DNA of 64,000 nucleotides. Origin: Dysgonomonas mossii DSM 22836 (lineage in GTDB: Bacteria; Bacteroidota; Bacteroidia; Bacteroidales; Dysgonomonadaceae). The notes below the pieces were generated by a model, which did not search any database, was not told where the DNA came from, and saw nothing but the letters and a program-made list of their open reading frames with translations. Shown here piece after piece: positions 40,874-56,094 of this stretch; position 1 is the stretch's first letter, and each line of letters opens with the position of its first letter. Location: contig NZ_GL892007.1 in assembly GCF_000213575.1 (NCBI RefSeq), forward strand, positions 1-64,000, written 5' to 3'. Made by a program: the position numbers and the translations under genes.

Positions 40874-40896
40874 AAACATTAAGATAAAATTTAAAC

Positions 40897-42231
40897 ATGA
40901 GCATTTATTTTACTAAAAGTTTGTTAGGTTTAGTAATGGCAGTAACCGGACTCTTCATTCCGGTTGCTGCTTTCTCTCAAAAAAAATGGACATTAAGAGA
41001 ATGCATAGACTATGCCAGACAAGAAAATATTCAAGTAAAGAAGTCCATTATTACTACAGAAAGTTACAATGTGGATATTTCGCAATCGAAGGCTGCATTG
41101 TTTCCGAGTTTAAGCGGAAGTATTTCGCAGCGATACACAAACTCTCAGTCACCGGATGGTGCCGGAGATTATCATTATGAAGGATTGTTCAATGGGCAAT
41201 ATACATTAAATGCAAACTGGACATTATACAATGGCGGAAAGAATAAAAATAACATCAAACAAGCTCAACTAAAAAAAGAAGCTCAAAGCCTGAATACGGA
41301 AAATATCCAGAATCAGACAGAGATAGCTATTACACAGGCTTATTTACAAATTTTATATAGTAGAGAGTCTATAAAAAATAATGAAAATATTGTAGCGTCG
41401 GACGAAGAGCAATTGAAACAGAGCAAAGAGTTTCTTGATGCGGGAAGTATTACACACAGTGAATATGCTCAAGTGGAAGCTCAATATAGCTCCGATAAGT
41501 ACAATCTGGTACAAGCACAAAGCTCTTACGAAAGTTACAAATTACAACTGAAGCAATTGCTCGAATTAGATTATGATGAAGATATAGACATTGTATTTCC
41601 AGAGATAAATGACGAGGATATACTATTATTTATTCCTTCGAAATATGAAGTCTACAGAAGATCTCTGAATATAATGCCCGAAGTAGCAAATAGTAAATTA
41701 AATATCCAGCTGGCTAATCTCAGTAAATCATCTGCAAAGGCAGGCTATCTACCTACTATCTCTGTTACAGGAAGTATAGGTACGGGTAATATATTTAATA
41801 ATTCCCCCTCTTTTGCTACACAAATAGGACGAAATTTCAATCAGTCTATAGGGCTTACACTTAGTGTGCCTATTTTCGATAATAAACAAAACAAGTCAAA
41901 CGTAAAAAAGGCTGAGCTCGACATACAGACAGCTCAACTAGAATTGATAGATACAGAAAAAACATTATTAAAGACGATAGAAACCTTATATCAGGATGCA
42001 GTATCGGGGCAAAGCAAGTATAGAGCTGCCAAGGATCAAGTAAAATCTTCGGAATTGAGTTATCAGCTTGTACTAGAGCAATATTCATTAGGAATACGCA
42101 ATACTGTAGAACTCACTACCGAAAAAAATAATTATGCCAATGCTTTACAGTCTTTACTACAAGCCAAATATACAGCATTACTAAGTTTGAAATTATTAAA
42201 TTTCTATCAAGGACAAGAATTAACGCTTTAA
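40897..42231 (+). CDS. TolC-family outer-membrane efflux protein
   Basis: The 444-residue protein has a signal peptide (cut near AAFSQ) and the two-fold repeated outer-membrane-factor helices and strands. The first half opens with WTLRECIDYARQENIQVKKS, followed by LNANWTLYNGGKNKNNIKQA. The second half contains LSVPIFDNKQNKSNVKKAEL and ends with TTEKNNYANALQSLLQAKY. It would form the trimeric channel for the MacA/MacB-type pump encoded directly downstream (7-bp gap). Confidence 0.93.
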   Translation: MSIYFTKSLLGLVMAVTGLFIPVAAFSQKKWTLRECIDYARQENIQVKKSIITTESYNVDISQSKAALFPSLSGSISQRYTNSQSPDGAGDYHYEGLFNGQYTLNANWTLYNGGKNKNNIKQAQLKKEAQSLNTENIQNQTEIAITQAYLQILYSRESIKNNENIVASDEEQLKQSKEFLDAGSITHSEYAQVEAQYSSDKYNLVQAQSSYESYKLQLKQLLELDYDEDIDIVFPEINDEDILLFIPSKYEVYRRSLNIMPEVANSKLNIQLANLSKSSAKAGYLPTISVTGSIGTGNIFNNSPSFATQIGRNFNQSIGLTLSVPIFDNKQNKSNVKKAELDIQTAQLELIDTEKTLLKTIETLYQDAVSGQSKYRAAKDQVKSSELSYQLVLEQYSLGIRNTVELTTEKNNYANALQSLLQAKYTALLSLKLLNFYQGQELTL

Positions 42232-42238
42232 TGAGATA

Positions 42239-43465
42239 ATGATGAAAAGAAAATCCAAAAAATATCTGATAATAGGTGCTATACTACTCGTTTTATGTTG
42301 TATAGCTTTTCTTATATTTCCACAAGGGAAAAAGACAATAACTACATTAATAACAGCTAAGGTAGAAAAAGGAAATCTTTCTATAGCCGTCACAGCGACA
42401 GGAACGATAGAACCTATCACCCTGGTAGAAGTAGGCACACAGGTTTCTGGTGTAATATCTAAAATATATGTGGATTACAATTCGGAGGTCAAGGCCGGAC
42501 AAGTACTTGCAGAATTGGATAAACGCCTACTCGCATCAGAACTGGAAAATGCAAATGCAGCACTTCAATCGAGACTAGTAGATCTGGATCTCCAAAAGAA
42601 AAATTATGAGAGGCAAAAAAGCCTTTGGGAAAAACAAGCAATCAGCAAAGTTGATTGGGAAAATGCCGAATCGACATACAAAACGGCTCAACTTGCTGTA
42701 ACATCATCCAAAGCTGCCGTATTAAAGGCTCAAACCAATCTTGGATATGCAACCATTACTTCTACAATAGACGGAGTAGTTGTTTCCCGTGCTGTAGAAC
42801 AAGGACAAACGGTAGCTGCATCTTTCAGTACGCCAACCCTTTTCACCATCGCAAACGACCTCACTAAGATGCGCGTAATAGCCAATGTAGATGAAGCCGA
42901 TATAGGTGGAGTAAAAGAAGGACAACGAGTATCTTTTACTGTGGATGCTTTTCCCGAAGACGAATTTGAAGGAAAAGTAGTGCAGGTAAGACTGGAAGCA
43001 ACAACTACATCTAACGTAGTTACATACCAAGTTGTAATAGATGCACCCAACCCTGATCTAAAATTAAAACCAGGGCTGACAGCAAACGTAAACATTTATA
43101 CAATGGAAGAAAAGGATTTACTATTGATTCCATCAAAAGCTTTACGTTTCAACCCTGTTCCCGAAGTAATGAAAGACATAGAAGGGCTAAAGGTATCTGA
43201 ACAAAAAGATCATGTTGATCCTAGTAATAAGACTCAAAAAATAGTATGGGTAAAGGAAGGAGACAAGCTATTACCTAAACATATTGTTATTGGCCAAACC
43301 GACGGCATACATACAGCTATAATAGAAGGACTACATGCAGGGAAAGAAATTGTAACCGGAATAGCACAAAAGACAAATGGCGATAAACCTGAAGCACAAG
43401 CAAATGGAAATGGAGAGTCTAGCCCTTTTATGCCAAAACGCCCCGAAGACAACAAGAAAAAATAA
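42239..43465 (+). CDS. MacA-like periplasmic adaptor (HlyD/RND-MFP family)
   Basis: The 408-residue adaptor has one N-terminal membrane helix (about 10-27). The barrel-sandwich domain carries the lipoyl-type halves VEVGTQVSGVISKIYVDYNS and LGYATITSTIDGVVVSRAVE. An alpha-hairpin (about 100-165), a beta-barrel (RVIANVDEADIGGVKEGQ) and a membrane-proximal domain with a longer-than-usual loop follow. The Gly/Asn/Pro/Lys-rich tail ends PKRPEDNKKK. It links the TolC-like channel to the MacB-type permease. The gene ends 4 bp before the ATPase start. Confidence 0.93.
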   Translation: MMKRKSKKYLIIGAILLVLCCIAFLIFPQGKKTITTLITAKVEKGNLSIAVTATGTIEPITLVEVGTQVSGVISKIYVDYNSEVKAGQVLAELDKRLLASELENANAALQSRLVDLDLQKKNYERQKSLWEKQAISKVDWENAESTYKTAQLAVTSSKAAVLKAQTNLGYATITSTIDGVVVSRAVEQGQTVAASFSTPTLFTIANDLTKMRVIANVDEADIGGVKEGQRVSFTVDAFPEDEFEGKVVQVRLEATTTSNVVTYQVVIDAPNPDLKLKPGLTANVNIYTMEEKDLLLIPSKALRFNPVPEVMKDIEGLKVSEQKDHVDPSNKTQKIVWVKEGDKLLPKHIVIGQTDGIHTAIIEGLHAGKEIVTGIAQKTNGDKPEAQANGNGESSPFMPKRPEDNKKK

Positions 43466-43469
43466 CGTA

Positions 43470-44210
43470 ATGAATAAAGAAATCATAAGAGTTGAAAACC
43501 TTAAGCGAAATTATATTGTTGGAGATGAAATAGTTCATGCTTTGAGAGGAATAGACTTTAGTATATCCGAAGGAGAATTTGTTACAATCATGGGTACAAG
43601 CGGGTCGGGTAAATCTACATTATTGAATATACTGGGCTGTTTGGATACCCCCTCGGATGGTGAATATTATCTGGATGGGATTTCTGTACGCAAAATGGGT
43701 AAAAATGAAAGGGCAACTCTCCGCAATCGTAAGATTGGATTTATATTTCAGTCTTACAATTTACTGGCAAAAACGACCGCTGTTGAAAACGTAGAACTAC
43801 CATTGATGTACAATCCTGATATATCTGCAAAAGATCGCCATCAGAGAGCCATAAAGGCCTTGCAAGATGTAGGATTGGGAGACCGACTGAATCATAAATC
43901 GAATCAAATGTCGGGAGGGCAAATGCAACGGGTAGCCATTGCCAGGGCATTAGTAAACAAGCCTGTAATCATATTAGCAGACGAAGCAACAGGAAATCTG
44001 GACACTCGTACTTCGTTCGAAATATTATCACTGATGCAGCGGTTACACTCTCAAGGACGTACTATTATATTTGTTACACACAACCTCGAAATATCGGCAT
44101 TTAGCAGTCGCAATATTGTTATACGAGACGGACGTATCAAGGAAGATACAAGGAATACAAATATTCAGTCAGCAAAAGAATTTCTGGCTAAATTACCGGT
44201 AGAAAACTGA
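43470..44210 (+). CDS. MacB-type ABC transporter ATPase
   Basis: ATG 43470 (MNKEIIRVENLKRNYIVGDE) is chosen, because earlier starts overlap the adaptor gene. The 246-residue ATPase has Walker A GTSGSGKST, Q-loop IFQSYNLLAKTT, the signature MSGGQMQRVAIARAL, Walker B VIILADEATGNLD and H-loop FVTHN. It is of the LolD/MacB class, which couples to permeases that move substrates in the periplasm. In E. coli MacB the ATPase is fused to the permease; here the parts are separate genes 9 bp apart. Confidence 0.95.
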   Translation: MNKEIIRVENLKRNYIVGDEIVHALRGIDFSISEGEFVTIMGTSGSGKSTLLNILGCLDTPSDGEYYLDGISVRKMGKNERATLRNRKIGFIFQSYNLLAKTTAVENVELPLMYNPDISAKDRHQRAIKALQDVGLGDRLNHKSNQMSGGQMQRVAIARALVNKPVIILADEATGNLDTRTSFEILSLMQRLHSQGRTIIFVTHNLEISAFSSRNIVIRDGRIKEDTRNTNIQSAKEFLAKLPVEN

Positions 44211-44219
44211 TATATTAAA

Positions 44220-45440
44220 ATGAATTTCATCAATCTTTTTAAAATAGCATTAAGAGCCCTTAGCGGGAACAAATTTAGGGGATTCCTTACTATGCTTGGT
44301 ATAATTATCGGTGTAGCTGCCGTTATCACGATGCTTGCAATAGGTCAAGGATCTAAAAAAAGTATACAGGATCAGATCTCTACAATGGGCTCTAATATGA
44401 TAAATATACGTCCCGGAACCGGACAATTTGGAGGTGTGCGTCAAAGCGCATCCAGCATGCAAACATTAAAGCTGGAAGATTATCAGGCAATAGTAGATCA
44501 GGCGGAATTCATTTCTGCGGCATCGCCCGAGGTTCAATCTTCGGGGCAAGTAATTTTTGGAGCAAATAATGCCCCAACATCTATTTATGGGGTAAATCCT
44601 TCTTTTCTTGATATCCGCAAATACACAATAGCACAAGGTGAAATGTTTACAGATGCGGACGTGAAGACATCTGCTAAAGTGTGCGTGATCGGACAAACTG
44701 TAGTTGATAACCTGTTTACCAATGGTGAAGACCCTGTAGGGCAATCGATACGTTTCAATAAAATCCCATTCAAAGTCATTGGTGTATTAACATCAAAAGG
44801 GGATAATACAATGGGTATGGATCAGGATGACCTGATAATATCACCCTACACTACTGTACAAAAGCGTATATTGGCAATAACTTATATACAATCCATATCG
44901 GTTTCGGCGGTTAGCGAAGATGCTACAGATCAAGCCATTTCGAGTATAGAGAATATAATGCGACAACAACATAAAATAACAGGGAATCAGGAAGACGACT
45001 TCAATGTACGATCGCAAAAGGAACTAATATCCATGATGAGCTCTACAACCGACATGATGACTATCTTGCTGGCATGTATAGCCGGAATATCTCTCTTTGT
45101 AGGTGGTATTGGCATAATGAATATCATGTATGTATCGGTAACAGAGCGCACAAGGGAAATAGGCTTGCGAATGTCTATCGGAGCCAAGGGATTTGATATA
45201 TTGATGCAGTTCCTTATAGAATCTATATTATTGAGCGTTACAGGAGGCGTAATAGGTGTAATCATTGGTATTGGCAGTGCATATATTGTGAAAAATATTT
45301 TAGCATGGCCTATAGATATTCAAGTTTATACTATAGCTTTGTCTTTTATAGTATGTACCGCTACCGGAATATTTTTTGGGTGGTATCCGGCAAAAAAAGC
45401 ATCAACCCTCGACCCTATAGACGCACTCAGATACGAATAA
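44220..45440 (+). CDS. MacB-type ABC transporter permease
   Basis: The 406-residue permease has the four-helix MacB/FtsX layout. One helix lies near the start (SGNKFRGFLTMLGIIIGVAAV) and is followed by a large periplasmic domain (about 45-275, MacB_PCD type). Three C-terminal helices carry ACIAGISLFVGGIGIMNIMY, VTERTREIGLRMSIGAKG and FGWYPAKKASTLDPIDALRY. It works by transmitting ATP hydrolysis to periplasmic conformational change. Together with the three preceding genes it forms a complete tripartite exporter of peptides, lipids or macrolide-like compounds. Confidence 0.94.
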   Translation: MNFINLFKIALRALSGNKFRGFLTMLGIIIGVAAVITMLAIGQGSKKSIQDQISTMGSNMINIRPGTGQFGGVRQSASSMQTLKLEDYQAIVDQAEFISAASPEVQSSGQVIFGANNAPTSIYGVNPSFLDIRKYTIAQGEMFTDADVKTSAKVCVIGQTVVDNLFTNGEDPVGQSIRFNKIPFKVIGVLTSKGDNTMGMDQDDLIISPYTTVQKRILAITYIQSISVSAVSEDATDQAISSIENIMRQQHKITGNQEDDFNVRSQKELISMMSSTTDMMTILLACIAGISLFVGGIGIMNIMYVSVTERTREIGLRMSIGAKGFDILMQFLIESILLSVTGGVIGVIIGIGSAYIVKNILAWPIDIQVYTIALSFIVCTATGIFFGWYPAKKASTLDPIDALRYE

Positions 45441-45442
45441 AA

Positions 45443-46531
45443 ATGAGAAACTTTATAAAAATATTTCCACATGTACTTATCTGGACAATTGTTTTAATTG
45501 TTCCTACCTATCTGATGTCAAGAGAAGGGGTATTTGATAGCAAACCTTTTTACAATTATTGCATACGTATTTCTCTACTAGCTATACTATTCTACTTCAA
45601 TTATTTATATTTAATAGAGAAGTTTCTATTCAACCGTAAGATTATTACCTATATAAGCATAAATATTGTTCTTGTCATTATTATTGTGGCATTACAAACA
45701 ACAATATCAGACCTACTCGCCTTTTCCATACCTGTCAATATGCAGGAACATCCAAAAGATTTTCCACGAATGGAGGATCATCGAAGAGGTGGTCCCGGAG
45801 GACCTCCTTTAATGAAATTTGTTATAGACTATATGTCTATCTTCTTTCTGATTGGTCTTAGCGTTGCCATAAAAATGACGGCTCGTTGGTATAAAGATTC
45901 TATAACCTTCGAGAAAATAAAAAGTGTACAATTAGAAGCGGATTTACGAAATCTTAGAAGTCAGCTAAATCCTCATTTTCTATTCAACACGTTAAATAAC
46001 ATATACTCGCTCATTGCTATAGATCAAAACGGAGCTCAGGATGCCATACATCGCTTGAGCAACTTGTTGAGATATGTTATGTATGACAATGATCAGAAAT
46101 TTGTTCCATTGGATAAAGAACTGGAATTCACAAAAAATTACATAGATTTGATGAGACTTCGTCTTAGTTCGATGGTAAAGCTGAATGTTGAAATAAATAG
46201 TGCAGAGAGCAAAGACCTGATTGCATCTCTGATGTTTATTACACTTATTGAAAATGCTTTTAAACACGGAATAAATAACGGAGAGAATAGCTTCATTAAT
46301 ATAAGTATCTTGGTTGATGCGGGAAAAGGTGTTTTATGCACTGTAGAAAATAGCTTGATTGAAAAAGCTGAAAATATGGAAACTCATAATTCAGGAATAG
46401 GACTTGTAAATCTTACGAAGAGGTTGGAGTTGTTATATCCCGACAGATATGAATTTATTGCAGAGAGACGCCCTGATCGCTTCTTTACATTATTGAAGAT
46501 AGATTTCAAAAAAATAGAAATAACAGCATGA
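45443..46531 (+). CDS. LytS/YehU-type sensor histidine kinase
   Basis: ATG 45443 (MRNFIKIFPHVLIWTIV) is chosen, since longer frames run through the permease gene. The 362-residue protein has four membrane helices. A linker after helix three is rich in Gly/Pro/Arg/His/Met (MQEHPKDFPRMEDHRRGGPG). The His_kinase domain follows with the phospho-acceptor box QLNPHFLFNTLNNIYSL, the N-box LIENAFKHGI and the G-box GIGLVNLTKRL. The exposed linker resembles in composition the N-terminus of the Spy-like protein that opens the operon. It overlaps the response regulator by 4 bp. Confidence 0.92.
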   Translation: MRNFIKIFPHVLIWTIVLIVPTYLMSREGVFDSKPFYNYCIRISLLAILFYFNYLYLIEKFLFNRKIITYISINIVLVIIIVALQTTISDLLAFSIPVNMQEHPKDFPRMEDHRRGGPGGPPLMKFVIDYMSIFFLIGLSVAIKMTARWYKDSITFEKIKSVQLEADLRNLRSQLNPHFLFNTLNNIYSLIAIDQNGAQDAIHRLSNLLRYVMYDNDQKFVPLDKELEFTKNYIDLMRLRLSSMVKLNVEINSAESKDLIASLMFITLIENAFKHGINNGENSFINISILVDAGKGVLCTVENSLIEKAENMETHNSGIGLVNLTKRLELLYPDRYEFIAERRPDRFFTLLKIDFKKIEITA

Positions 46532-47229
46532 CACTCAAATGTATAATAATAGACGATGAACCTTTGGCTATTGATTTACTAAAATCATACGTCTTAAAGA
46601 CATCTTATCTGGAGCTAGTTGGAACATTTAATAGTGCACTAGCTGCTATCAGTACAATAAATGAGAGACAGATAGATCTACTATTTCTTGATATCAACAT
46701 GCCTCAAATTAATGGACTTGAGTTTTCAAAAACAATACACGCATCTACACGTATTATTTTCACTACGGCGTACGATCAATATGCAGTTGAAGGCTTCCGC
46801 GTAAACGCTTTGGACTACCTTCTTAAGCCGATAAATTACACAGATTTCTTACAGGCAACAAACAAAGCATTAGAGTGGTTCAAAATGGCAAATATATCTC
46901 ATTCTACAACAAGTATATTTATAAAATCGGGTTATAGAATGGAAAAAATAGATTTTGACAATATTTTGTATATAGAGAACCAGAAAGATTATGTGAAATT
47001 CCATCTCGAAAGTCAAAAAGAACCAATTAGCTCTTTAATGAGTATGCAATCACTTGAAGAAAAACTACCAAGTAAATTATTTATGAGAGTGCATCGTTCT
47101 TTTATTGTCAATCTGAACAAAATAAAAACAATAGAACGAAATTGTATCGTTTTCGGAAAAGAATACATCCCTGTCTCCGAATCATATAAAAGCAAATTCA
47201 TGGAATTTCTTAACAAACATTTTTTTTAA
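46528..47229 (+). CDS. LytTR-type response regulator
   Basis: The 233-residue regulator has an N-terminal receiver domain: acidic IIDDEPLA, phospho-acceptor Asp in LLFLDINMPQ, TTAY and a Lys in YLLKP. The C-terminal LytTR DNA-binding domain reads IFIKSGYRMEKIDFDNILYI, KLFMRVHRSFIVNLNKI. It is translationally coupled to the kinase through an ATGA overlap. Location at the end of the pump operon suggests it controls that operon. LytTR sites could not be identified with confidence in the 236-bp region before 40304. Confidence 0.95.
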   Translation: MTLKCIIIDDEPLAIDLLKSYVLKTSYLELVGTFNSALAAISTINERQIDLLFLDINMPQINGLEFSKTIHASTRIIFTTAYDQYAVEGFRVNALDYLLKPINYTDFLQATNKALEWFKMANISHSTTSIFIKSGYRMEKIDFDNILYIENQKDYVKFHLESQKEPISSLMSMQSLEEKLPSKLFMRVHRSFIVNLNKIKTIERNCIVFGKEYIPVSESYKSKFMEFLNKHFF

Positions 47230-47242
47230 ATGTCTTCTTAAT

Positions 47243-47261
47243 TCACGATTTTTCATCGTGA
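47243..47261 (+). other. Small hairpin after the LytTR gene
   Basis: TCACGAT (47243-47249) pairs with ATCGTGA (47255-47261) around TTTTC. No good T-tract follows, so it is only a possible weak terminator for the pump operon. The rest of the 47230-47405 gap is AT-rich with nothing recognised before the TetR promoter. Confidence 0.4.
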
Positions 47262-47371
47262 CAAATAATCATCTTCCATTATAATCTATATACTAAAAAG
47301 ATTAGCGATAATCGTATAGATTGAATATCCAAACCTAAGCATTTGTAAAATATTTTTTAACACAAAAGATA

Positions 47372-47401
47372 TTGCATTTTTAAATTTTATCATGATCTTT
47401 G
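47372..47401 (+). promoter_or_regulatory. Promoter of the TetR-family gene
   Basis: TTG (47372-47374) and GATCTTTG (47394-47401, one mismatch to TAnnTTTG) are 19 bp apart. Predicted transcription start is near 47408, inside the operator palindrome. Confidence 0.55.
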
Positions 47402-47405
47402 CAAT

Positions 47406-47421
47406 GTGAACGATCGTTCAC
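47406..47421. promoter_or_regulatory. TetR operator overlapping the transcription start
   Basis: GTGAACGATCGTTCAC is a perfect 16-bp palindrome directly downstream of the -7 box and 24 bp before the regulator's ATG. Its position would block initiation, fitting autorepression. A related site lies at 48082-48097. Confidence 0.8.
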
Positions 47422-47444
47422 ACCTTTTATTTTTAACTCAAATA

Positions 47445-48062
47445 ATGAAATATAGTAGAGAATATATATTAAGGAGAGCCTTTGATGTTTTCATGAATAA
47501 AGGCTATGATAGTGCTTCAATATCTGTGTTACAAGAAGAATTACAGATGTCTAGGGGTGCTTTGTATCGCTATTTTAAAAATAAAGAAGAGCTTTTTAAC
47601 GCTGTAATAGATGAATATTTCTTTAAAATATTCGATAAGCTGCAGCACAATATGGATAAGCATACCTACTCTCTAGAGAAATTTATAGAGGTAATGCATA
47701 GACGACAAAAAATAGTTGTCAATGCTTTTACCAGAGCAGGTGTTACCCATACTATCTTCTTAAATTATACAGCTCTTATAATACAAGCCGGCAAGCATTA
47801 TCCTGAATTTTTAGAACGATTTAGAATAATAAATAATCGATCCTTAGAATCATGGAAAGATGCTATGCGGAACAGTATAAATGCGGGAGAGATTAAAGAT
47901 GATATAGATATAGATATCTTAGCAATCTTGTTTAATAATACAAGTGTGAAAGAGACCTCTGACAGGGATTGTGACGATTCTTCATTCGCTATTAATGTAA
48001 TGCAGGATATGAATCGGAGGATGGAAGTAATGCGTTATTTATATAGCCTAATAAAAGTATAG
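47445..48062 (+). CDS. TetR/AcrR-family transcriptional repressor
   Basis: ATG 47445 is chosen: an in-frame GTG at 47406 lies within the operator and is not a credible start. The 205-residue protein has the N-terminal TetR helix-turn-helix (YILRRAFDVFMNKGYDSASI, then SVLQEELQMSRGALYRYFKN). A helical ligand domain follows, without a recognised subfamily. It probably represses itself and the downstream lipid-related genes through the two similar operators. The inducer is unknown; a fatty acid or acyl-CoA would fit the neighbourhood but is inference. Confidence 0.92.
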   Translation: MKYSREYILRRAFDVFMNKGYDSASISVLQEELQMSRGALYRYFKNKEELFNAVIDEYFFKIFDKLQHNMDKHTYSLEKFIEVMHRRQKIVVNAFTRAGVTHTIFLNYTALIIQAGKHYPEFLERFRIINNRSLESWKDAMRNSINAGEIKDDIDIDILAILFNNTSVKETSDRDCDDSSFAINVMQDMNRRMEVMRYLYSLIKV

Positions 48063-48081
48063 CTCTAATGAACAATGAAAT

Positions 48082-48097
48082 GTGAATGAATGTTCAT
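48082..48097. promoter_or_regulatory. Second TetR operator-like site, before the pldA-like gene
   Basis: GTGAATGAATGTTCAT matches the palindrome at 47406-47421 in 12 of 16 positions, keeping the outer TGAA...TTCA halves. It lies 103 bp before the next gene. No TAnnTTTG box is visible in this gap, so the downstream genes may also be read from the TetR promoter. Confidence 0.55.
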
Positions 48098-48199
48098 TAT
48101 AAAACAGCAACATAGAAAACGAAATCACAAGATAACCGCTCAGAAATGAGAATTCATTTATTTACTCATCATTAGACAATTTATAATACTAATCACCTC

Positions 48200-49105
48200 A
48201 TGTTAAGAAGCTATATATTTATAATACTTATTATTTCATCAGTTACACTACTAGCTCAAAATGATACAGATTTAATGTATCTAGGTAACGATAGCATACG
48301 GCAGCAGTACGACAGTGCAATGAAAGACCCTCATATTTTTCGCCCAAGGCATTTAGAAATATCAGAGAGGGATGCTATAAAAATGGCAGACCGTATGCCT
48401 GCATTCGCTGTATATAGAGACACTTATTTTGTTACCGGGGTACCACTGGATGAGAAGATTTCAGAAAACAGTGCTGATGTAACTTTCCAGCTGAGTATAA
48501 GACAACGACTGACTAGAAGTATCTTACCTTTTAAATCATTCTTGTATTTAACTTATACACAAAAATCATTTTGGAACATATACGCTCAATCGAGCCCATT
48601 CAGAGATACAAATTATAATCCGGGTGTAGGGCTTGGAAAGTATATATTGTATAAAGACAGAGTGGTTGGTGCCGCCTTTGTACAGTTGAAACATGAATCG
48701 AACGGACGAGATGAGGAAGAATCCAGAAGCTGGAACTATTTAAGTTTATCAATGAAATATTATTTCAACGCCCGATTCAATATCTCTGGAGAAGTTTGGA
48801 TTCCATATGTGGATGGGGGAAACAATAAAGATCTGCTAGATTATAGAGGGCTTGGCTTTGTTTCGTTCAACTACACAAGTGATAAACATCGATGGTGGCT
48901 TTCAGCAGATATCAATCCGCGAAAAGGATGGGGTAATGTGAATACGACTCTCACCGCTGCATTTAAAATGTCAGACAGATCGAACCAGTATCTATTTGCT
49001 CGTTTCTACCAAGGGTACGGAGAAAGTCTGCTCGGCTACAATCAATATACAATGAATATAAGAGTAGGTATTTGTATAAAACCTAATTTCTATAATTTCT
49101 TTTAA
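48200..49105 (+). CDS. pldA: Outer-membrane phospholipase A (OMPLA) homologue
   Basis: OMPLA is a dimeric outer-membrane barrel that hydrolyses phospholipids that have leaked into the outer leaflet. The 301-residue protein has a signal peptide (cut near TLLAQ). The family motifs are TYTQKSFWNIYAQSSPFRDT, NYNPGVGLGKY and the catalytic strand KHESNGRDEEESRSWN, which keeps His, Ser and Asn of the triad. A barrel of normal size ends in MNIRVGICIKPNFYNFF. It heads the cluster behind the TetR gene and is followed after 2 bp by the thioredoxin-like gene. Confidence 0.88.
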   Translation: MLRSYIFIILIISSVTLLAQNDTDLMYLGNDSIRQQYDSAMKDPHIFRPRHLEISERDAIKMADRMPAFAVYRDTYFVTGVPLDEKISENSADVTFQLSIRQRLTRSILPFKSFLYLTYTQKSFWNIYAQSSPFRDTNYNPGVGLGKYILYKDRVVGAAFVQLKHESNGRDEEESRSWNYLSLSMKYYFNARFNISGEVWIPYVDGGNNKDLLDYRGLGFVSFNYTSDKHRWWLSADINPRKGWGNVNTTLTAAFKMSDRSNQYLFARFYQGYGESLLGYNQYTMNIRVGICIKPNFYNFF

Positions 49106-49107
49106 AA

Positions 49108-49545
49108 ATGTTTGATTTAAAAAAAATTCGTTTCAAAACATGGCATTTCGTTGTACTATTTGTCCTTTTTTTTATTCTGGTAAACATTATAGGACTAATA
49201 TCTATAAGCGGGAACTCATACTCTATTGAAAATGAAATTGCACAAATAGAAGAAATATATGATTTGTCGGAAATAGAGAATTCTGCTGAGATTGTGTCTA
49301 TTATTTTTTACAAAGAAGACTCGAACATTTGTGGAAAAATGATGCACAATATAAATCAGCTAACAAACAAGAATAGTAAGTTTTACAGATCGGAAGTAAA
49401 TAAGAACTCCGAATTATATAAAAAGCATAATATATCCGGAGTTCCTTGTACTTTGATACTTAAAAATGGAGAAGAAATAAGTCGTATTATGGGTTTAGTT
49501 CCAACCTCTAATATGGAAATTATCTATAGTAGGATTGCAAAATAG
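49108..49545 (+). CDS. Membrane-anchored thioredoxin-like protein with a single active-site cysteine
   Basis: A 145-residue protein with one N-terminal membrane helix (about 12-34) and a thioredoxin-like domain. The strand SIIFYKED is followed by SNICGKMMH, where CXXC would be expected; only the first Cys remains. A second Cys follows the cis-Pro (GVPCTLIL). The domain ends GLVPTSNMEIIYSRI. It is anchored with the domain probably in the periplasm. It sits between the phospholipase and the ketosynthase genes, so a role in that pathway is inferred only from position. Confidence 0.75.
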   Translation: MFDLKKIRFKTWHFVVLFVLFFILVNIIGLISISGNSYSIENEIAQIEEIYDLSEIENSAEIVSIIFYKEDSNICGKMMHNINQLTNKNSKFYRSEVNKNSELYKKHNISGVPCTLILKNGEEISRIMGLVPTSNMEIIYSRIAK

Positions 49546-49574
49546 TTGTAGATAATATAAAACAACACACTAAT

Positions 49575-50522
49575 ATGTTTATTAACTCAATTGGATGTTA
49601 CGTCCCGAAAACAAGGATTCCAAACGATTACTTCACCGAAATAAACGGATTAACAAGTGATTGGATAAATCAACGTACAGGAATCTTAACTCGTTCAAGA
49701 GCTTCGCAGGAAGAAACGATAGACTATATGTCTAGCAAAGCCATAGAGTCGGCATTACCGGATCTTCCCTACAATATAGAAGATATAGATCTGATAATTT
49801 TTGCATCATATACGCCTAGTGATACAATTGTTACAACAGGGCATTATGTACAGCGCAAATACAATATATCAAATGCAAAAGTATTTTTTGTATCATCGGC
49901 ATGTTCGTCAGGGCTGAATGCTATAGAAATTATATATTCTTTCTTTACATCGCAGATAGCAGAAAAAGCATTACTTATCTGCGCCGATCGCAACTCTACA
50001 TATTCAGATGATACAGATTGCATATCAGGGCATTTGTGGGGAGATGGAGCTACTGCTTACTTTTTTTCAACCGAATCCTATTCAGAAAAAGATCCTCAGA
50101 TTATAGATATCACAACACAAGGATTAGGACATATAGGGTTAGCTTCGAGAGCGGTTTATCTTAATCCGAAAGAAGATGGTTTGAAAATGCCTCATGGCAA
50201 AGATGTATTTATACAGGCTTGCACATATATGGCGCAAAACACGAAGGATATAGTCGAAATGAACGGATATTCGTTAGATGATTTAACCTTTTTTATAGGG
50301 CATCAGGCTAATATGAGAATATTAAAGAATGTCGCGAAACAACTCGCTATACCCGAAGAAAAGGTATTATCTAATATTGAAGAGTTAGGCAACACCGGCT
50401 CAACAAGTGCCTTGTTGGTATTGGCACAAAACATAAAAAAAATAGCACGAGGAGACCTAATATGTATATCGGTCTTCGGTGGGGGGTATTCTACAGGCTC
50501 ATGCCTGATCAAGATTCCCTAA
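49575..50522 (+). CDS. FabH-like 3-oxoacyl-ACP synthase III
   Basis: The 315-residue ketosynthase III has the full triad: Cys in SSACSSGLNAIEI (near residue 112), His in GHQANMRILKNVA and Asn in ELGNTGSTSALL. The glycine-rich C-terminal ISVFGGGYSTGSCLI is present. Housekeeping FabH starts fatty-acid synthesis with acetyl-CoA. This copy sits in a TetR-controlled cluster away from other fab genes, and its N-terminal (INSIGCYVPKTRIPNDYFTE) is divergent, so a specialised acyl starter is likely. Substrate unknown. Confidence 0.88.
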   Translation: MFINSIGCYVPKTRIPNDYFTEINGLTSDWINQRTGILTRSRASQEETIDYMSSKAIESALPDLPYNIEDIDLIIFASYTPSDTIVTTGHYVQRKYNISNAKVFFVSSACSSGLNAIEIIYSFFTSQIAEKALLICADRNSTYSDDTDCISGHLWGDGATAYFFSTESYSEKDPQIIDITTQGLGHIGLASRAVYLNPKEDGLKMPHGKDVFIQACTYMAQNTKDIVEMNGYSLDDLTFFIGHQANMRILKNVAKQLAIPEEKVLSNIEELGNTGSTSALLVLAQNIKKIARGDLICISVFGGGYSTGSCLIKIP

Positions 50523-50546
50523 ATATAAAATTAAAGAATTATTATT

Positions 50547-51524
50547 ATGGTTTATCAACGTACTTTAAAAAATAGTTTTTCCCTACAAGGGAAAGGATTG
50601 CATACAGGACTAAATATACATATCACATTCAACCCGGCACCTGAAAATTTTGGATATAAGATCAGACGTGTAGATATGCCGGGAAAACCGATAATAAATG
50701 CTTTGGCAGAAAACGTTACGGCGACCCAAAGAGGAACTGTAGTATCAGCCAATAATGTTAATGTAAGCACGGTAGAGCATGCTATGGCTGCATTATATGC
50801 ATGTGAAATAGACAATTGCCTGATAGATGTAGATGGACCCGAATTCCCTATATTAGATGGAAGTTCTATTTTGTATGTAAGTAAAATAAAAGAAGTCGGC
50901 ACAGAAATACAGAATACAGCAAGAGAATATATTTCGATAAAACGCAAAAAAATTAAGGTTGTAGATAAAGCCACCGGATCGTCAATGATATTGATCCCTG
51001 ATGACTCTTTTAGTATAGAATCACACATATCATTCAACTCTACATTCCTAAAAAGGCAAGATGCAACAATGCATGATCTGTCTGAATTTCCAAAAGACTT
51101 TGCTTCTGCAAGAACATTTGTGTTTGTAAAAGAAATCGAATCTCTACTCAATAATGACTTAGTGAAAGGTGGAGATTTAGATAACGCCATTGTTATATAT
51201 GATAAGCCAATAGAGCAAGAAAAGTTTGATCTATTAGCAGACATGTTGGGTGCAAAGAGAAAAGATTCTACAAAGTTAGGATACATTATGAACAAACCTT
51301 TGCTTTATCCAAACGAACCGGCCAGGCATAAATTGTTAGACATCGTAGGTGATTTGGCTTTAGTAGGTCGTTTCATAAAGGGAAAAGTTATAGCTAATTG
51401 TCCGGGACATAAAATAAACAATATGTTTGCCAGAGCCATTAGAGAAGCCGTATTCCCTAGTGTACAAGAAGAATCGATTATACTAACAGAAAATAGTCAT
51501 GCAGGTCTATATTCTTTAGCTTAA
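50547..51524 (+). CDS. lpxC: Stand-alone LpxC (UDP-3-O-acyl-GlcNAc deacetylase)
   Basis: LpxC performs the committed step of lipid A synthesis using zinc. The 325-residue protein contains the start LQGKGLHTGLNIHITFNPA, the first zinc His in NVSTVEHAMAALYA, the second ligand pair in ARHKLLDIVGDLAL and the catalytic His in NCPGHKINNMFAR. All key residues are therefore kept. Bacteroidetes usually carry LpxC fused to FabZ (about 460 residues); this one ends without any dehydratase domain. Together with its neighbours it looks like a second, regulated copy for lipid A or a lipid A-like molecule. Confidence 0.9.
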   Translation: MVYQRTLKNSFSLQGKGLHTGLNIHITFNPAPENFGYKIRRVDMPGKPIINALAENVTATQRGTVVSANNVNVSTVEHAMAALYACEIDNCLIDVDGPEFPILDGSSILYVSKIKEVGTEIQNTAREYISIKRKKIKVVDKATGSSMILIPDDSFSIESHISFNSTFLKRQDATMHDLSEFPKDFASARTFVFVKEIESLLNNDLVKGGDLDNAIVIYDKPIEQEKFDLLADMLGAKRKDSTKLGYIMNKPLLYPNEPARHKLLDIVGDLALVGRFIKGKVIANCPGHKINNMFARAIREAVFPSVQEESIILTENSHAGLYSLA

Positions 51525-51530
51525 TCAATA

Positions 51531-51725
51531 ATGAAAGATATATTACAATTCATATTACACAATAAAATTGTACTGATAGGTATGTTCATCGGTTTCATTG
51601 CCGCATATATCTATTGGTACTATTTTGCATGTTACTGGGGAACATATCCCCTTTCGTCTGAATCTTGGGTAAATTGTGGTTTTGGAACAATATTAGGCGG
51701 CTTATTTGTTACGTTAATCAATTAA
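51531..51725 (+). CDS. DUF6132-like small membrane protein
   Basis: A 64-residue protein with two membrane helices (about 10-30 and 48-63) separated by a loop ACYWGTYPLSSESWVNCG. It resembles the DUF6132 family, where the loop reads like CxxGTCPI; here the second Cys is replaced by Tyr and another Cys appears later. It begins 6 bp after lpxC, so it is the last gene of that unit. Function unknown. Confidence 0.72.
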   Translation: MKDILQFILHNKIVLIGMFIGFIAAYIYWYYFACYWGTYPLSSESWVNCGFGTILGGLFVTLIN

Positions 51726-51782
51726 AATTAGTATATTTACATATAAGGTAAGCTTTATTTAACCAAACTAAAACTATTCGCC

Positions 51783-52007
51783 ATGCTAAGAAAAGATATT
51801 CGTATAAACGCCACAGCTATTTGGCAGTATCTGTCAGAGAAAGGCAAGATGTCGGTTCAGGAAATCGAAGAATTAACACATTACAAAAATTCGTTGATAC
51901 TTCTTGCGTTAGGTTGGCTCTCGAAGGAAAACAAAGTACGTTTTTCAGTCAAAAATGACAACCTATATGTTGAACTAAGTAGTACTCCTACTGAAATATA
52001 TTACTAG
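51783..52007 (+). CDS. Small winged-helix protein (DUF2582-like)
   Basis: A 74-residue protein predicted to form one winged helix: NATAIWQYLSEKGKMSVQEI, then EELTHYKNSLILLALGWLSK and a hairpin ENKVRFSVKNDNLYVEL. This is the pattern of the DUF2582 family, short Bacteroidetes proteins of unknown role that may bind DNA. It is separated from the lpxC unit by 57 bp with a near-consensus box TATATTTA (51731-51738). Confidence 0.8.
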   Translation: MLRKDIRINATAIWQYLSEKGKMSVQEIEELTHYKNSLILLALGWLSKENKVRFSVKNDNLYVELSSTPTEIYY

Positions 52008-52165
52008 GAAGTGACTAAATTCGGGAACTATATCATATTCTCAGAAGGAAATATGATAAATTATCCCAGAAGATTTTAGCGTTAAAAAGCATTAATTTAC
52101 AAAACTAAAAACTTCTGCCACAAAATCATTGTGTAACTTTATCAGCATTTCTTTTAGAATAATTT

Positions 52166-53272
52166 ATGAATATTAAGAATCTCTTACTATTTATCTTGTC
52201 TATGCTGAGTATTACTTCATGCATTAAAGATGAGCCGCTCAATATGGAGGCGGACATTATAGATATGAAAGTTGAAGATGAAGCATTTATAACTCGGGCT
52301 ATAACAGAGCATACTGTTCAGCTTTTCGTCTCTGATAATGCTGATTACTCACACCTTACACCAATAATTGAAGTTACTGCCGGAGCTACGATCGAACCCA
52401 AATCGGGAACTTCTCAAGATTTCTCAAATGGAAAAAATGTTATCTATACAGTAACTTCCGAAGATGGTAAATATACCAAAACATATACTGTAACAGTAAC
52501 CTCCAAGATTAGTCTTAAAAATACGTTCGAAGAATGGACAACAGCGGGTACTGAAAAAGCTCCATATCCGATTTTAAGTGATCTCTTATGGAGTAATGCA
52601 AATTCGGGACTATCCATTTTGGTAGGCACCGGATCATTAACTTTGGATCATTATCCTACTGATAAAACGACCGACTGCGTTAATGGAAAATATGCGGCAA
52701 TACTACGCACGATAAAAGGGACAAAAGTTTTTGGAACAGACTACCCTATTTTTTCCGGATCACTTTTTAGAGGTGCTTTCTCCGCGAATATGTCTAACCC
52801 TTTAAAGTCACTAATATTAGGACAAGCTCATCTGAAAGAAAGTGGTAAACCGATCATGTTCAACGGCTACTACAAATATACCCCGGGCGATATTTTTACA
52901 GGTAAAGACGGAAAGGTTATAGCAAACAAAACAGATTCGCTGTCGATGTATGCTACGATATTTAAAGTGAGTAAAGGAGCTCCTGCAAACGAAGAGTTTC
53001 TTGATGGGGAATCAATTCTTACGTCTCCTAGAGTTGTAGGAACAGCCAAATGGTCTCATACAGACAAGAGTATAGTGGAAACACCTGCAAGCAATGGATT
53101 TATACAATTTTCTATTCCATTCAGGTATAAAGAAGAACTCGATTTTACGAAAAATGATTATCGCCTTACCATCGTATTGGCTTCAAGCAAAGATGGAAAC
53201 GAATATCAGGGAGCTGTAGGCAGCACTCTTATTGCTGATGATCTTGAACTAGTATGTGATCCTATAAAATAA
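52166..53272 (+). CDS. PCMD-domain lipoprotein (putative carbohydrate metabolism domain)
   Basis: The 368-residue protein has a lipoprotein signal (LSITSC). Next comes a DUF5018-type Ig-like domain (about 30-115, repeating VTAGATIEPKSGTSQDFSNG and YTVTVTSK). The large C-terminal domain (FEEWTTAGTEKAPYPILSDL to IADDLELVCDP) has the PCMD pattern: N-terminal FEEW, a central GAAFRG-like LFRGAFSANM and a final DDLEL. Such proteins are exported and probably bind glycans, but this is a family-name guess. It is followed after 11 bp by a beta-barrel gene, probably in the same transcript. Confidence 0.8.
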   Translation: MNIKNLLLFILSMLSITSCIKDEPLNMEADIIDMKVEDEAFITRAITEHTVQLFVSDNADYSHLTPIIEVTAGATIEPKSGTSQDFSNGKNVIYTVTSEDGKYTKTYTVTVTSKISLKNTFEEWTTAGTEKAPYPILSDLLWSNANSGLSILVGTGSLTLDHYPTDKTTDCVNGKYAAILRTIKGTKVFGTDYPIFSGSLFRGAFSANMSNPLKSLILGQAHLKESGKPIMFNGYYKYTPGDIFTGKDGKVIANKTDSLSMYATIFKVSKGAPANEEFLDGESILTSPRVVGTAKWSHTDKSIVETPASNGFIQFSIPFRYKEELDFTKNDYRLTIVLASSKDGNEYQGAVGSTLIADDLELVCDPIK

Positions 53273-53283
53273 GAATATATACG

Positions 53284-54048
53284 ATGAGATTAAAATATAA
53301 CATCATCTTAATATTTGCAACAGTATTAATGATAAGTAATAATATTTCAGCGCAGAATTCTGATAACAGAACATTCGATCTGAGCTTTATACTAGGCTTT
53401 AATATGGGAGCAACTGCACCTGTACCTATTCCGGCTGAAGTAAGAGAGATTAATAGTTACAACCCAAAATTCAACCCTCAATTAGGATTCAATCTGGTCT
53501 ACAACCTCAACGAACGATGGAGTGTAGGTACAGGGTTAACTCTTGATTGGAAAGGCATGCGGGTTTCCGATCATGTGAAATACATGTATACAAGTGTTAC
53601 TCTGAGCGAAGGGAGCGAAAAGTTGACAGGTTACTTTGTAGGAAAAAATGTAACGAATGTAAATATGACTTATCTTACCGTACCTATATATGGTACATAC
53701 CGATTCAATAACAAATGGCAAGTTAAACTGGGTATATATGCAGCAAGAACTCTCTCATCCAAGTTTGACGGATATGTAAATGATGGTTACATCAGAATCG
53801 ATTCTCCGGTAGGTCAAAAACAAGAGATAAGCGGGGACGGTGCAACATTCGACTTTGGTGACGACTCCCGTGACTATGATTTTGGACTATTAGCAGGAGG
53901 TGAATATCGCTTAAATAATCGTATCGGGTTTTATGGCAGTTTCACATGGGGGCTTCTTCCTTATTTTTATTCGGGATCAAACCCTATTAAATTCACGTTC
54001 TACAATATATACGGTACACTAGGTATCACCTATCGATTAAGCAAATAA
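53284..54048 (+). CDS. Outer-membrane beta-barrel protein
   Basis: A 254-residue protein with signal peptide (cut near NISAQ) and eight or more amphipathic strands ending in TFYNIYGTLGITYRL. The pattern NPQLGFNLVYNLNERWSVGTG matches the PorT/OmpA-like barrel group of Bacteroidetes. It has no periplasmic OmpA domain. It follows the PCMD lipoprotein gene by 11 bp and precedes the DUF3667 gene by 22 bp. No specific role can be assigned. Confidence 0.8.
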   Translation: MRLKYNIILIFATVLMISNNISAQNSDNRTFDLSFILGFNMGATAPVPIPAEVREINSYNPKFNPQLGFNLVYNLNERWSVGTGLTLDWKGMRVSDHVKYMYTSVTLSEGSEKLTGYFVGKNVTNVNMTYLTVPIYGTYRFNNKWQVKLGIYAARTLSSKFDGYVNDGYIRIDSPVGQKQEISGDGATFDFGDDSRDYDFGLLAGGEYRLNNRIGFYGSFTWGLLPYFYSGSNPIKFTFYNIYGTLGITYRLSK

Positions 54049-54070
54049 CTATAATAGCTTTTTTTGAACT

Positions 54071-55048
54071 ATGAGTAAACATAAGATCAGGATCAACAAG
54101 ACTTGCCAAAATTGCGGGGCTTTTGTTGAGCAGCACTACTGTCCTAAATGTGGACAAGAAAACAGTGAAAGCAGGCAATCTTTCCATCATGTATTTACTC
54201 ATTTTGTATTCGATTTTTTGCATTACGACAGCTCATTTTGGAGAACAGCAAAATATCTTTTTCTTTCTCCCGGTAAACTCTCATTGGAGTATATGAATGG
54301 AAAACGGAAATCGTACGTAAATCCTTTTACTCTTTATATATTCATCAGTTTCATTGCCTTTTTTATCCCCCCTCTCCTTCCCGAAGTATCAACACCAGAC
54401 AAAGAAAAAATAGAACAAGAGATCAGCGAGAATGTAAATAGTGACTCTTTAGATACGATTATCACAAAGCTGGATGTAAATAATAAGAAACTCATTAATG
54501 AGGCTAAAATACCTGAAAAGATTAATAAGATAGAAGATAAAATTAATAATGCGGGAGTAGATGAAAAGACGGGGAATAAGACAAAACAATTTATAGCAGG
54601 TATATTAGAGAATGTAAAAGATAAACAAAAAGGAGAAAAAGCCATCGAGTTCTTCATTCACAATATCCCCAAAGTTCTCTTTATATATATGCCTCTCTTT
54701 GCCTTTTGGTTATGGTTGTTTCATAATAAAAAGAAAAAGTATTATTTCGACAGCGCAGTTTTTACATTGCATTTCTTTTCTACGACCTTGCTAACGATAA
54801 CGATAGCAACAATTCTAAGCTGTCTGTTCGATTGGTTAAACTTAAATACAACATTCTATTTTCTTTTATATTCTTTTGCTACTCTATATGTAACATTCTA
54901 TTTTTTCAGAGGAAATAGAGTATTCTTTGAAGAGAACAGATTGATATCCAATTTGAAATCTTTTGTTCTGATAAGTATAAATAGCTTTTTTATCTTCCTT
55001 ACTTTTACATTGTATGTTGTATTTGTAGTGTATATGATATATACTTAA
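54071..55048 (+). CDS. DUF3667 membrane protein with N-terminal zinc ribbon
   Basis: The 325-residue protein starts with a zinc ribbon CQNCGAFVEQHYCPKCGQEN (Cys pairs near residues 14/17 and 26/29). The DUF3667 region SRQSFHHVFTHFVFDFLHYD and SLEYMNGKRKSYVNPFTLY leads into a first membrane helix. A charged coiled-coil segment of about 100 residues follows, then four or more C-terminal helices. Family function is unknown. The stop overlaps the converging YcaQ-like gene by 4 bp. Confidence 0.85.
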   Translation: MSKHKIRINKTCQNCGAFVEQHYCPKCGQENSESRQSFHHVFTHFVFDFLHYDSSFWRTAKYLFLSPGKLSLEYMNGKRKSYVNPFTLYIFISFIAFFIPPLLPEVSTPDKEKIEQEISENVNSDSLDTIITKLDVNNKKLINEAKIPEKINKIEDKINNAGVDEKTGNKTKQFIAGILENVKDKQKGEKAIEFFIHNIPKVLFIYMPLFAFWLWLFHNKKKKYYFDSAVFTLHFFSTTLLTITIATILSCLFDWLNLNTTFYFLLYSFATLYVTFYFFRGNRVFFEENRLISNLKSFVLISINSFFIFLTFTLYVVFVVYMIYT

Positions 55049-56094
55049 AGTAGGTATTTTTTATATCCTTCGATAGCTTTAGTAACCAAATTCTGCGTTT
55101 TCTTATTTGATGTGCAAAAGAACTCGGTATCAAGAATTTCATTCTTTTTTGATGACTTTTTCCAAGTACCAATAACTTTGCCATCAAGGCTGATAGCAGG
55201 TCTGAATATTCCCGGACTTGTTATTATTTTATGGTGATGGTCTATATGCAGACTTTCTTTTCTATCCTTATAGCTAACTGTAAATTCATCAAAAGCAGGT
55301 AAAAGATTGATCAAATTATTACTGCTGACTAGTTTAGAGTCTCTATGAAAAATATATGTTTGATCATTTATTGTTTCATGAATAAAATCGTCCCCTATCA
55401 GAGCTATTCCTTGTCTGGCTTCTGCTGTAGTCAATCCCGACCACCAAACAAAATCCTGTAAAGTAGCAGGGCCATGACTCCTAAAATATTTGAATGCTAA
55501 TTTATACAGGCATTCATCTTTATCGAAATGATCTGTCGTTTTTTCAACTTTTTCTTGCAACAAAGCATACGTCTGTTTTTTGCCTTTCGTCTCTCCATTG
55601 CATACAACGCCATCCAACTCGGCATGCATCATTATATGATTAACGGTTCTATTGTCAGCATCTATACCTGCCCTATTTATTACATCTTTCAGCTCTTGAC
55701 GTGTTAATGAATTTCCCTGAAGTGCCTTTTCTATAATTGAATTTGTACGGGCTATTAATGATTCGGTAAGTCCCAGATCCTTATCATAAGATCGCATTGC
55801 AGTTTTCACTCTCGGAAGACTCAAATAAAGCATCCAGTATATATCGTCCTTAGATACAAAATGCCATGTAGGACGTAAGATATGAAGACGCAAAATATCA
55901 CCCTTGTTCAAAGCCTCTTCAATCTTCTGATCGGGAATCTCGGGAATACGTATACCGATGCCCCATTTCGCCATATTGTAGTCTTGTGCCTGAATAGCTC
56001 CCATCCACGAAACCAACTCGTATGCTTCGCCCACGAATGTACCATCCAACTGATGATTAGATAAGCGTAAGGATAGAATTTCTTCTGCTTTCAT
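55045..56094 (-). CDS. Winged-helix DNA-binding domain protein (HTH_42, YcaQ-like)
   Basis: The 349-residue protein matches the HTH_42 family: LSLRLSNHQLDG, VSWMGAIQAQDYNMAKWGIG, LRLHILRPTWHFVSKDDI, then HAELDGVVCNG and the later LAFKYFRSHGPATLQDFVWW and LLPAFDEFTVSYKDR. Relatives include glycosylases that unhook interstrand DNA crosslinks (AlkX/YcaQ and AlkZ). The glycosylase QxQ-type motif region (AIQAQD) is present, so such activity is plausible but unproven. It follows nadC by 16 bp and may share the nad transcript. Confidence 0.85.
   Translation of the reverse strand: MKAEEILSLRLSNHQLDGTFVGEAYELVSWMGAIQAQDYNMAKWGIGIRIPEIPDQKIEEALNKGDILRLHILRPTWHFVSKDDIYWMLYLSLPRVKTAMRSYDKDLGLTESLIARTNSIIEKALQGNSLTRQELKDVINRAGIDADNRTVNHIMMHAELDGVVCNGETKGKKQTYALLQEKVEKTTDHFDKDECLYKLAFKYFRSHGPATLQDFVWWSGLTTAEARQGIALIGDDFIHETINDQTYIFHRDSKLVSSNNLINLLPAFDEFTVSYKDRKESLHIDHHHKIITSPGIFRPAISLDGKVIGTWKKSSKKNEILDTEFFCTSNKKTQNLVTKAIEGYKKYLL

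What the first reader, a model, noticed from the sequence alone, without database searches (positions are those of the whole stretch)
47406..51725. TetR-controlled outer-membrane lipid cluster: OMPLA, thioredoxin-like, FabH-like, stand-alone LpxC, DUF6132
A perfect operator palindrome covers the predicted transcription start of the TetR gene, and a 12/16 match lies before the OMPLA gene. The genes downstream are spaced by 2-29 bp. They join phospholipid removal from the outer leaflet (OMPLA), a dedicated acyl-chain starter (FabH-like) and the committed step of lipid A synthesis (LpxC), with a membrane-anchored thioredoxin-like protein. I know of no described system with this set. It could rebuild the outer leaflet, or make a lipid A-like glycolipid, under a specific signal.
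Basis: partly seen in the sequence, partly recalled or inferred. Interest (0 to 1): 0.72.

Follow-up and report, generated by a model that had tools for sequence, protein, structure and literature searches.

The report
Repressor-controlled outer-membrane lipid gene cluster
In Dysgonomonas bacteria one switch protein appears to control a conserved set of genes that may strip misplaced lipids from the cell's outer surface and start making its proper lipid, which offers a testable case of how such bacteria keep their outer membrane in order.

Summary
The 16/16 palindrome (47406-47421) overlies the TetR promoter start; the 12/16 site (48082-48097) lies before OMPLA. Sites of this form recur at these two places in 19 TetR loci (window included): 34 of 35 pattern hits in 1.66 Mb of fetched loci. 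The genes are conserved: FabH-like directly beside stand-alone LpxC in 12 of 18 near-complete genomes of the window's genus. An SxxC thioredoxin-like gene beside stand-alone LpxC recurs in 13 of 19 further family stretches, several behind RND pumps or OMPLA. A second module, with RND pump and patatins instead of OMPLA, lies on contig 7 of the same genome. Stand-alone LpxC looks like an old paralogue of LpxC-FabZ. LpxB and LpxD are single-copy, which speaks against a separate glycolipid pathway. Most likely: an inducible module that removes outer-leaflet phospholipid and raises acyl-chain and lipid A synthesis, like the E. coli PldA-LpxC loop but wired by transcription. Repression, ligand, activities and lipid output are inferred, not shown.

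The parts
47406..47421 (.). operator 1, perfect 16-bp palindrome at the predicted TetR transcription start, just behind a TTTGC box
   Evidence: pattern found upstream of TetR in 12 of 19 operator-bearing TetR loci
47445..48062 (+). TetR-family regulator, probable repressor (start ATG 47445)
   Evidence: PF00440 E 9.5e-14; start conserved; helical AlphaFold2 model pLDDT 85.5
48082..48097 (.). operator 2 between TetR and OMPLA, 12/16 match to operator 1
   Evidence: a site in the same gap in 18 of 19 loci
48200..49105 (+). OMPLA/PldA-type outer membrane phospholipase A
   Evidence: PF02253 E 2.6e-42; His-Ser-Asn motif aligned with 1qd6, kept in 12 of 12 rows, window included
49108..49545 (+). 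thioredoxin-like protein with N-terminal hydrophobic helix and SxxC instead of CxxC
   Evidence: PF00085 E 9.5e-6; S72/C75 invariant in 12 rows; model pLDDT 80.9: helix 11-34, then alternating strands and helices
49575..50522 (+). FabH-like KASIII of a Bacteroidales subfamily (here FabH2)
   Evidence: PF08541/PF08545; below the NCBIfam fabH cut-offs; C-H-N motifs present
50547..51524 (+). stand-alone LpxC (here LpxC2)
   Evidence: PF03331 E 1e-79; TIGR00325 210.1 bits over cut-off 187.25; catalytic residues invariant in 13 rows
51531..51725 (+). small membrane protein, DUF6132-like
   Evidence: PF19628 E 0.031, cut-off not reached; conserved next to LpxC2
51783..52007 (+). winged-helix DUF2582 protein behind the cluster
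   Evidence: PF10771 E 3.8e-16; present in 6 of 8 loci with the full layout, window included

Best explanation
An autoregulated TetR unit for restoring the outer-membrane outer leaflet. Shown by sequence: TetR with two conserved operators, one at its own transcription start and one before the next gene; closely spaced genes on one strand; intact catalytic motifs of OMPLA, KASIII and LpxC; conserved neighbourhood. Inferred: in the resting state TetR represses the unit. A hydrophobic or acyl ligand, such as fatty acid or acyl-CoA that builds up when phospholipids reach the outer leaflet, or an envelope-active amphiphile, releases it. OMPLA then degrades misplaced phospholipids, FabH2 starts new acyl chains, and LpxC2 adds lipid A capacity outside the control of the housekeeping LpxC-FabZ. 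The membrane-anchored SxxC thioredoxin-like protein and the DUF6132-like protein would be accessory factors at the inner membrane. In relatives a Kdo-kinase-like enzyme or RND pump joins the set.
For: Operators at the two places in 19 loci; 34 of 35 pattern hits in 1.66 Mb lie there. Footprint on a TTTGC box in 12 of 13 promoters. In 7 whole genomes of the genus the 37 hits outside the clusters are about as many as the 35 of the reversed control pattern, so the regulon looks local. FabH2-LpxC2 adjacent in 12 of 18 genus genomes. TetR and operators of this kind front different subsets: TetR-LpxC2 (L194), TetR-OMPLA-LpxC2 (L196), TetR-FabH2 (Bacteroides-type loci). Phospholipase in the module comes as OMPLA or, on contig 7, as patatin. 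LpxB and LpxD single-copy. E. coli precedent: PldA-made fatty acids raise LpxC through acyl-CoA (PMC5874903, abstract and discussion). Among the top structural neighbours of the TetR model is B. subtilis FadR with stearoyl-CoA.
Against: The TetR fold match is weak (TM 0.54 to FadR) and drug-binding TetRs (SmeT, TtgR, QacR, MexL) score alike, so the ligand is open. Of 18 genus genomes 3 have no LpxC2 and 3 have it without FabH2 beside it. Of 19 family stretches around other stand-alone LpxC genes, 6 show no Trx-like neighbour by my profiles, and most lack OMPLA, FabH2 and this TetR. Only 19 of 102 loci with a TetR upstream of FabH2 or LpxC carry the operator; the Parabacteroides-type ones do not. 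No promoter box was found at operator 2. The contig-7 module has no operator of the pattern. Two module Trx-like proteins lack the SxxC Cys. No expression or lipid data.
Confidence: 0.5

Rival explanations
1. Acyl-chain remodelling: FabH2 uses a different starter (straight against branched) and LpxC2 prefers the resulting 3-hydroxyacyl substrate, so the unit changes which lipid A is made rather than how much.
For: FabH2 is a KASIII subfamily clearly apart from housekeeping FabH (E at most 2e-102 against 1e-31 to 1e-49; tree); in two Parabacteroides loci it is followed by a FabG-like SDR (read by eye); LpxC2 is 59% identical to the LpxC part of the fused gene and forms a separate group.
Against: FabH2 without LpxC2 and LpxC2 without FabH2 are both common; starter specificity was not tested.
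Confidence: 0.22
2. Defence against an envelope-active compound: TetR senses it, an RND pump exports it, and spare FabH and LpxC isozymes are poorly inhibited copies of targets.
For: RND, MFP or TolC genes lie near stand-alone LpxC in L186-L188, L192, L193, L198, L199 and L202-L204 and beside the contig-7 copy; TetR resembles efflux regulators as much as FadR.
Against: Does not explain OMPLA, patatin, the Kdo-kinase-like gene or the SxxC thioredoxin-like gene; the window cluster itself holds no pump.
Confidence: 0.2
3. A separate lipid A-like glycolipid is made by the cluster.
For: Extra LpxC and acyl starter in one cluster.
Against: LpxB and LpxD are single-copy in this genome and no acyl- or glycosyltransferase was recognised in the cluster. 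LpxA, LpxH and LpxK were not counted.
Confidence: 0.05
4. Neighbours by chance without joint function.
For: Layouts vary between lineages.
Against: Conserved adjacency and operators in many genomes.
Confidence: 0.03

Closest known systems
E. coli PldA-FadD-acyl-CoA-LpxC homeostasis loop (May and Silhavy 2018, PMC5874903, abstract and discussion read; lysophospholipid arm PMC13170283, abstract read)
   Same: OMPLA and LpxC coupled to restore outer-leaflet lipid balance
   Different: In E. coli coupled through LpxC degradation by FtsH; here adjacent genes behind a TetR, with an extra stand-alone LpxC and a KASIII
Bacteroidota LpxC-FabZ fusion (NF009667)
   Same: LpxC domain, 59% identical to that of the host's own fused enzyme
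   Different: The window protein lacks FabZ and scores 402.6 against a cut-off of 465; separate group in the tree
FabH/KASIII (TIGR00747, PRK09352)
   Same: Cys-His-Asn motifs, near full-length alignment to 2ebd
   Different: 177.8 and 216.1 bits, under the cut-offs 292.1 and 249; a TetR just upstream in 100 of 123 rows
E. coli CnoX thioredoxin domain (PMC8129009, passages seen)
   Same: SxxC in place of CxxC
   Different: CnoX acts in the cytoplasm and carries TPR repeats; this one has an N-terminal membrane helix and no TPR
B. subtilis FadR (3whc)
   Same: TetR fold, structure with stearoyl-CoA, among top fold matches
   Different: Weak similarity, ligand untested

Membership tests
TetR regulators | N-terminal TetR HTH | tested here: met
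   PF00440 51.4 bits, cut-off 24
TetR regulators | palindromic operator at own promoter | tested here: met
   (sequence only; binding not tested)
TetR regulators | ligand that releases DNA | not testable with these tools
   fold search not discriminating
OMPLA/PldA (PF02253) | His-Ser-Asn catalytic residues | tested here: met
   alignment with 1qd6, 12 of 12 rows; roles of the residues recalled
OMPLA/PldA (PF02253) | outer-membrane location and phospholipase activity | not testable with these tools
   signal-like N-terminus seen by eye only
LpxC | family cut-off and zinc/catalytic residues | tested here: met
   residue roles recalled from E. coli LpxC
LpxC-FabZ bifunctional enzyme | C-terminal FabZ domain | tested here: not met
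   325 aa, no FabZ
FabH (NCBIfam fabH) | curated cut-off | tested here: not met
   but KASIII domains over Pfam cut-offs
FabH (NCBIfam fabH) | Cys-His-Asn triad motifs | tested here: met
   window; 118 of 123 subfamily rows fit the strict motifs; L020, L102, L106, L144, L155 do not
thioredoxin | CxxC active site | tested here: not met
   SxxC in 20 of 24 rows; of the other four, L078 and L103 are ordinary CxxC thioredoxins outside the module, L193 and L195 are module members without the Cys
DUF6132 (PF19628) | curated cut-off | tested here: not met
   14.3 bits against 23.2
PldA-LpxC lipid-signal loop | OMPLA and LpxC present and coupled | tested here: inconclusive
   linked by gene order and operators; function not tested
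PldA-LpxC lipid-signal loop | FadD-type acyl-CoA step and FtsH/LapB control | not tested
   no call made

The most novel reading that the evidence does not exclude
Dysgonomonadaceae have re-invented the PldA-to-LpxC feedback as a transcriptional circuit: fatty acids freed by OMPLA become the ligand of a dedicated TetR, which then switches on OMPLA, a KASIII and a proteolysis-independent extra LpxC, with an SxxC thioredoxin-like/DUF6132-like membrane pair as a new lipid A accessory unit.
Probability: 0.25. Interest if true: 0.8.

Novelty: new variant of a known kind. Interest (0 to 1): 0.6.

Why it matters
How Bacteroidota, whose usual LpxC is fused to FabZ, balance lipid A against phospholipid is to my knowledge open. 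May and Silhavy ask in their discussion whether PldA-dependent control of LPS reaches other Gram-negative species. Here OMPLA, an acyl starter and a spare LpxC share one switch with a defined operator, so the question becomes directly testable by band shift, knockout and lipidomics.

Tried and rejected
Trx-DUF6132 mixed-disulfide idea: rejected as a requirement, because the Trx-like protein loses its Cys in L193 and L195 while the DUF6132-like proteins there keep theirs, and in L187 the DUF6132-like protein has lost the loop cysteines while Trx keeps its own. Independent recruitment of FabH2 into the window and contig-7 modules: the trees place them apart, but the AU test does not reject one clade (p 0.248); left open. 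An E. coli-like LpxC degron at the free C-terminus (degron recalled): tails vary, several ending near FYW; no support. TetR control of the contig-7 module: no site of the pattern in L005, only a partial match at L005:1357. Wider regulon: none apparent in 7 genomes. Similar half-sites at C3:174278 and C3:174922 flank another TetR and an SMR-type transporter (named by eye). Sigma-70-type promoter scan: 24 sites against 26.4 in shuffles, no use.

Literature: I saw only listings for (0 papers; 36: 0; 61: 11 listed; 65: 15 of 1,879 listed; 105: 10 of 31 listed; 106: 1; 107: 1, not on DUF6132 by its title). No title or abstract start shown there describes this gene set. Only open-licence PMC papers are held.

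Distribution limits: the list was cut, so its statement on stand-alone LpxC over the order covers the rows shown; there, frames under 400 aa belong to the window's family except three rows with a stop inside the match (G221, G311, G137), which were not followed. Neighbourhood names come from my own profiles seeded with the two clusters.
Full report
Observation. The window is G000:C4:1-64000 of a 3.95-Mb genome; the nearest named records are mostly Dysgonomonas, so I call its genus that. The five genes behind TetR are as described, on one strand, 2-29 bp apart. The TetR start should be ATG 47445: ATG-K-Y stands there in 12 of 16 aligned rows and GTG-K-Y in the 4 Bacteroides-type rows; the listed GTG 47406 lies inside the operator.

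Operators. The 16/16 palindrome has no other match with up to 3 mismatches in the window. I scanned 142 loci (1,658,750 bases, a few places fetched twice, window 40001-56000 included) with RTGAAYN4RTTCAY: 35 hits, of which 34 lie just upstream of TetR or in the gap behind it, in 19 loci; the odd one is L048:8482. The 19 are among 102 loci with a TetR upstream of FabH2 or LpxC: 14 Dysgonomonadaceae-type and 5 Bacteroides-type; Parabacteroides-type loci have none. A site lies upstream in 12 of the 19 and in the gap in 18. L015 and L098 hold too little upstream sequence to judge; L014, L016, L018 and L019 have imperfect upstream versions; L010's has a decayed right half and L025 lacks the gap site. 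In 12 of 13 aligned promoters the operator sits right behind a TTTGC box, starting 31-42 bases before the ATG; the box resembles the Bacteroidota -7 element as I recall it. At the second site no promoter box is evident, so it may act on its own promoter or on read-through. In 7 whole genomes of the genus the pattern gives 5-12 hits each against 0-8 for the reversed control. Outside the clusters that is 37 against 35 in all, so the regulator looks local.

Conservation. FabH2 separates cleanly from housekeeping FabH. Among 18 genus genomes at least 90% complete (own included), 15 have a stand-alone LpxC and 12 have FabH2 directly beside it. In G008 FabH2 ends at a contig edge and LpxC2 is on another contig; in G013 they lie about 24 kb apart; G014 has no FabH2; G011, G025 and G027 have no stand-alone LpxC. 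Of 19 other stretches around stand-alone LpxC genes of the family (L186-L204), 13 have the Trx-like gene beside it, 12 of these also the DUF6132-like gene (L195's shows). The trio stands alone in L189-L191, L200 and L201, behind RND pumps in L187, L192, L198, L199 and L203, and with OMPLA in L193 and L204. L194 is TetR-LpxC2 and L196 TetR-OMPLA-LpxC2, both with the operators. In the order sample (295 genomes) the SxxC Trx family scores below 1e-50 in three genomes, all of the window's family (5 in the sample); the next best elsewhere is 2.4e-23. In a phylum sample of 392 genomes only the window's own passes 1e-28. FabH2 itself is wider: 47 of 295 genomes of the order at E 1e-80. A TetR lies just upstream in 100 of 123 FabH2 rows, some of them the same place fetched twice.

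Second module. Contig 7 of the same genome carries patatin, MFP, RND, TolC, Trx-like, Kdo-kinase-like (21.2 bits, just under the Pfam cut-off 21.3), FabH2, LpxC2, DUF6132-like, patatin (the first patatin, the MFP and the DUF6132-like protein by my own profile). FabH2 and LpxC2 there are each 62% identical to the window's. No operator of the pattern is present. A phospholipase of another family in the same setting is, to my mind, the best hint that phospholipid removal is part of the job.

Ancestry and activity. In a tree of 66 LpxC domains, 32 stand-alone and 34 fused sequences part at one branch (SH-aLRT 97, quick method, unrooted, three long rows). This fits an old paralogue rather than recent loss of FabZ. 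The catalytic residues are invariant in 13 rows. The OMPLA motif is present in 12 of 12 rows. The thioredoxin-like protein keeps SxxC in 20 of 24 rows; two of the other four are ordinary thioredoxins and two are module members. Its model (pLDDT 80.9) has a helix 11-34 and then a strand-helix order that fits a thioredoxin fold; no fold search was run on it. From the positively charged N-terminus I infer a periplasmic domain.

Mechanism. LpxB and LpxD are single-copy, so LpxC2 most simply feeds the normal lipid A route. In E. coli, OMPLA-made fatty acids become acyl-CoA and stabilise LpxC, raising LPS (PMC5874903, abstract and discussion read); lysophospholipids form a second arm (PMC13170283, abstract). 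The cluster would do the like by transcription. Shown: parts, motifs, operators, conservation. Inferred: repression, co-transcription, ligand, activities, output. The TetR model (pLDDT 85.5) ranks FadR with stearoyl-CoA second in PDB, but at TM 0.54, with multidrug TetRs close behind.

Limits. MAG-derived loci may be incomplete; several trees are 'quick'; neighbourhood names come from my own profiles except where Pfam or NCBIfam is named.

Noticed in passing
L005 (G000:C7:128000-147000), 293-11121: Second copy of the module in the same genome, with MFP-RND-TolC, a Kdo-kinase-like gene and two patatins.
   Followed up: yes
L009:7330-7632, L012:6434-6736, L013:6573-6875, L098:370-672, L196:5020-5322: A conserved 100-residue ORF stands between TetR and the next cluster gene in 10 loci (also L010, L011, L099, L205, L212); faint likeness to TM1506 (E 0.002-0.15), FeMo-cofactor (0.1) and MrpORP (about 6e-4) models, none over a cut-off. 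No hit in the window, L211, L025, L106 or L194.
   Followed up: partly
window 40897-47229: OEP, HlyD-type, ABC and MacB-type genes (a MacAB-TolC-like export set), then a His_kinase and a LytTR regulator, lie directly upstream on the same strand.
   Followed up: partly
L026:8367-11391, L056:8358-11388: In Parabacteroides the FabH2 gene follows a different TetR and is followed by a FabG-like SDR and an RluA-like gene (read by eye): a widespread TetR-KASIII pair of unknown role.
   Followed up: partly
L129 (G000:C3:168000-184000), 5936-6940: Another TetR with an SMR-type transporter (by eye) and similar TGAAC-N4-GTTCA sites.
   Followed up: partly
window 61372 to about G000:C4:67003: MFP-RND-TolC set about 10 kb downstream of the cluster.
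   Followed up: no
window 52166-54048: PCMD-domain protein followed by an OMP beta-barrel protein, just behind the cluster.
   Followed up: no
L187, L198, L199, L203: DUF6132-like proteins of one genus lack the CYWGTYP cysteine motif that most others keep.
   Followed up: partly
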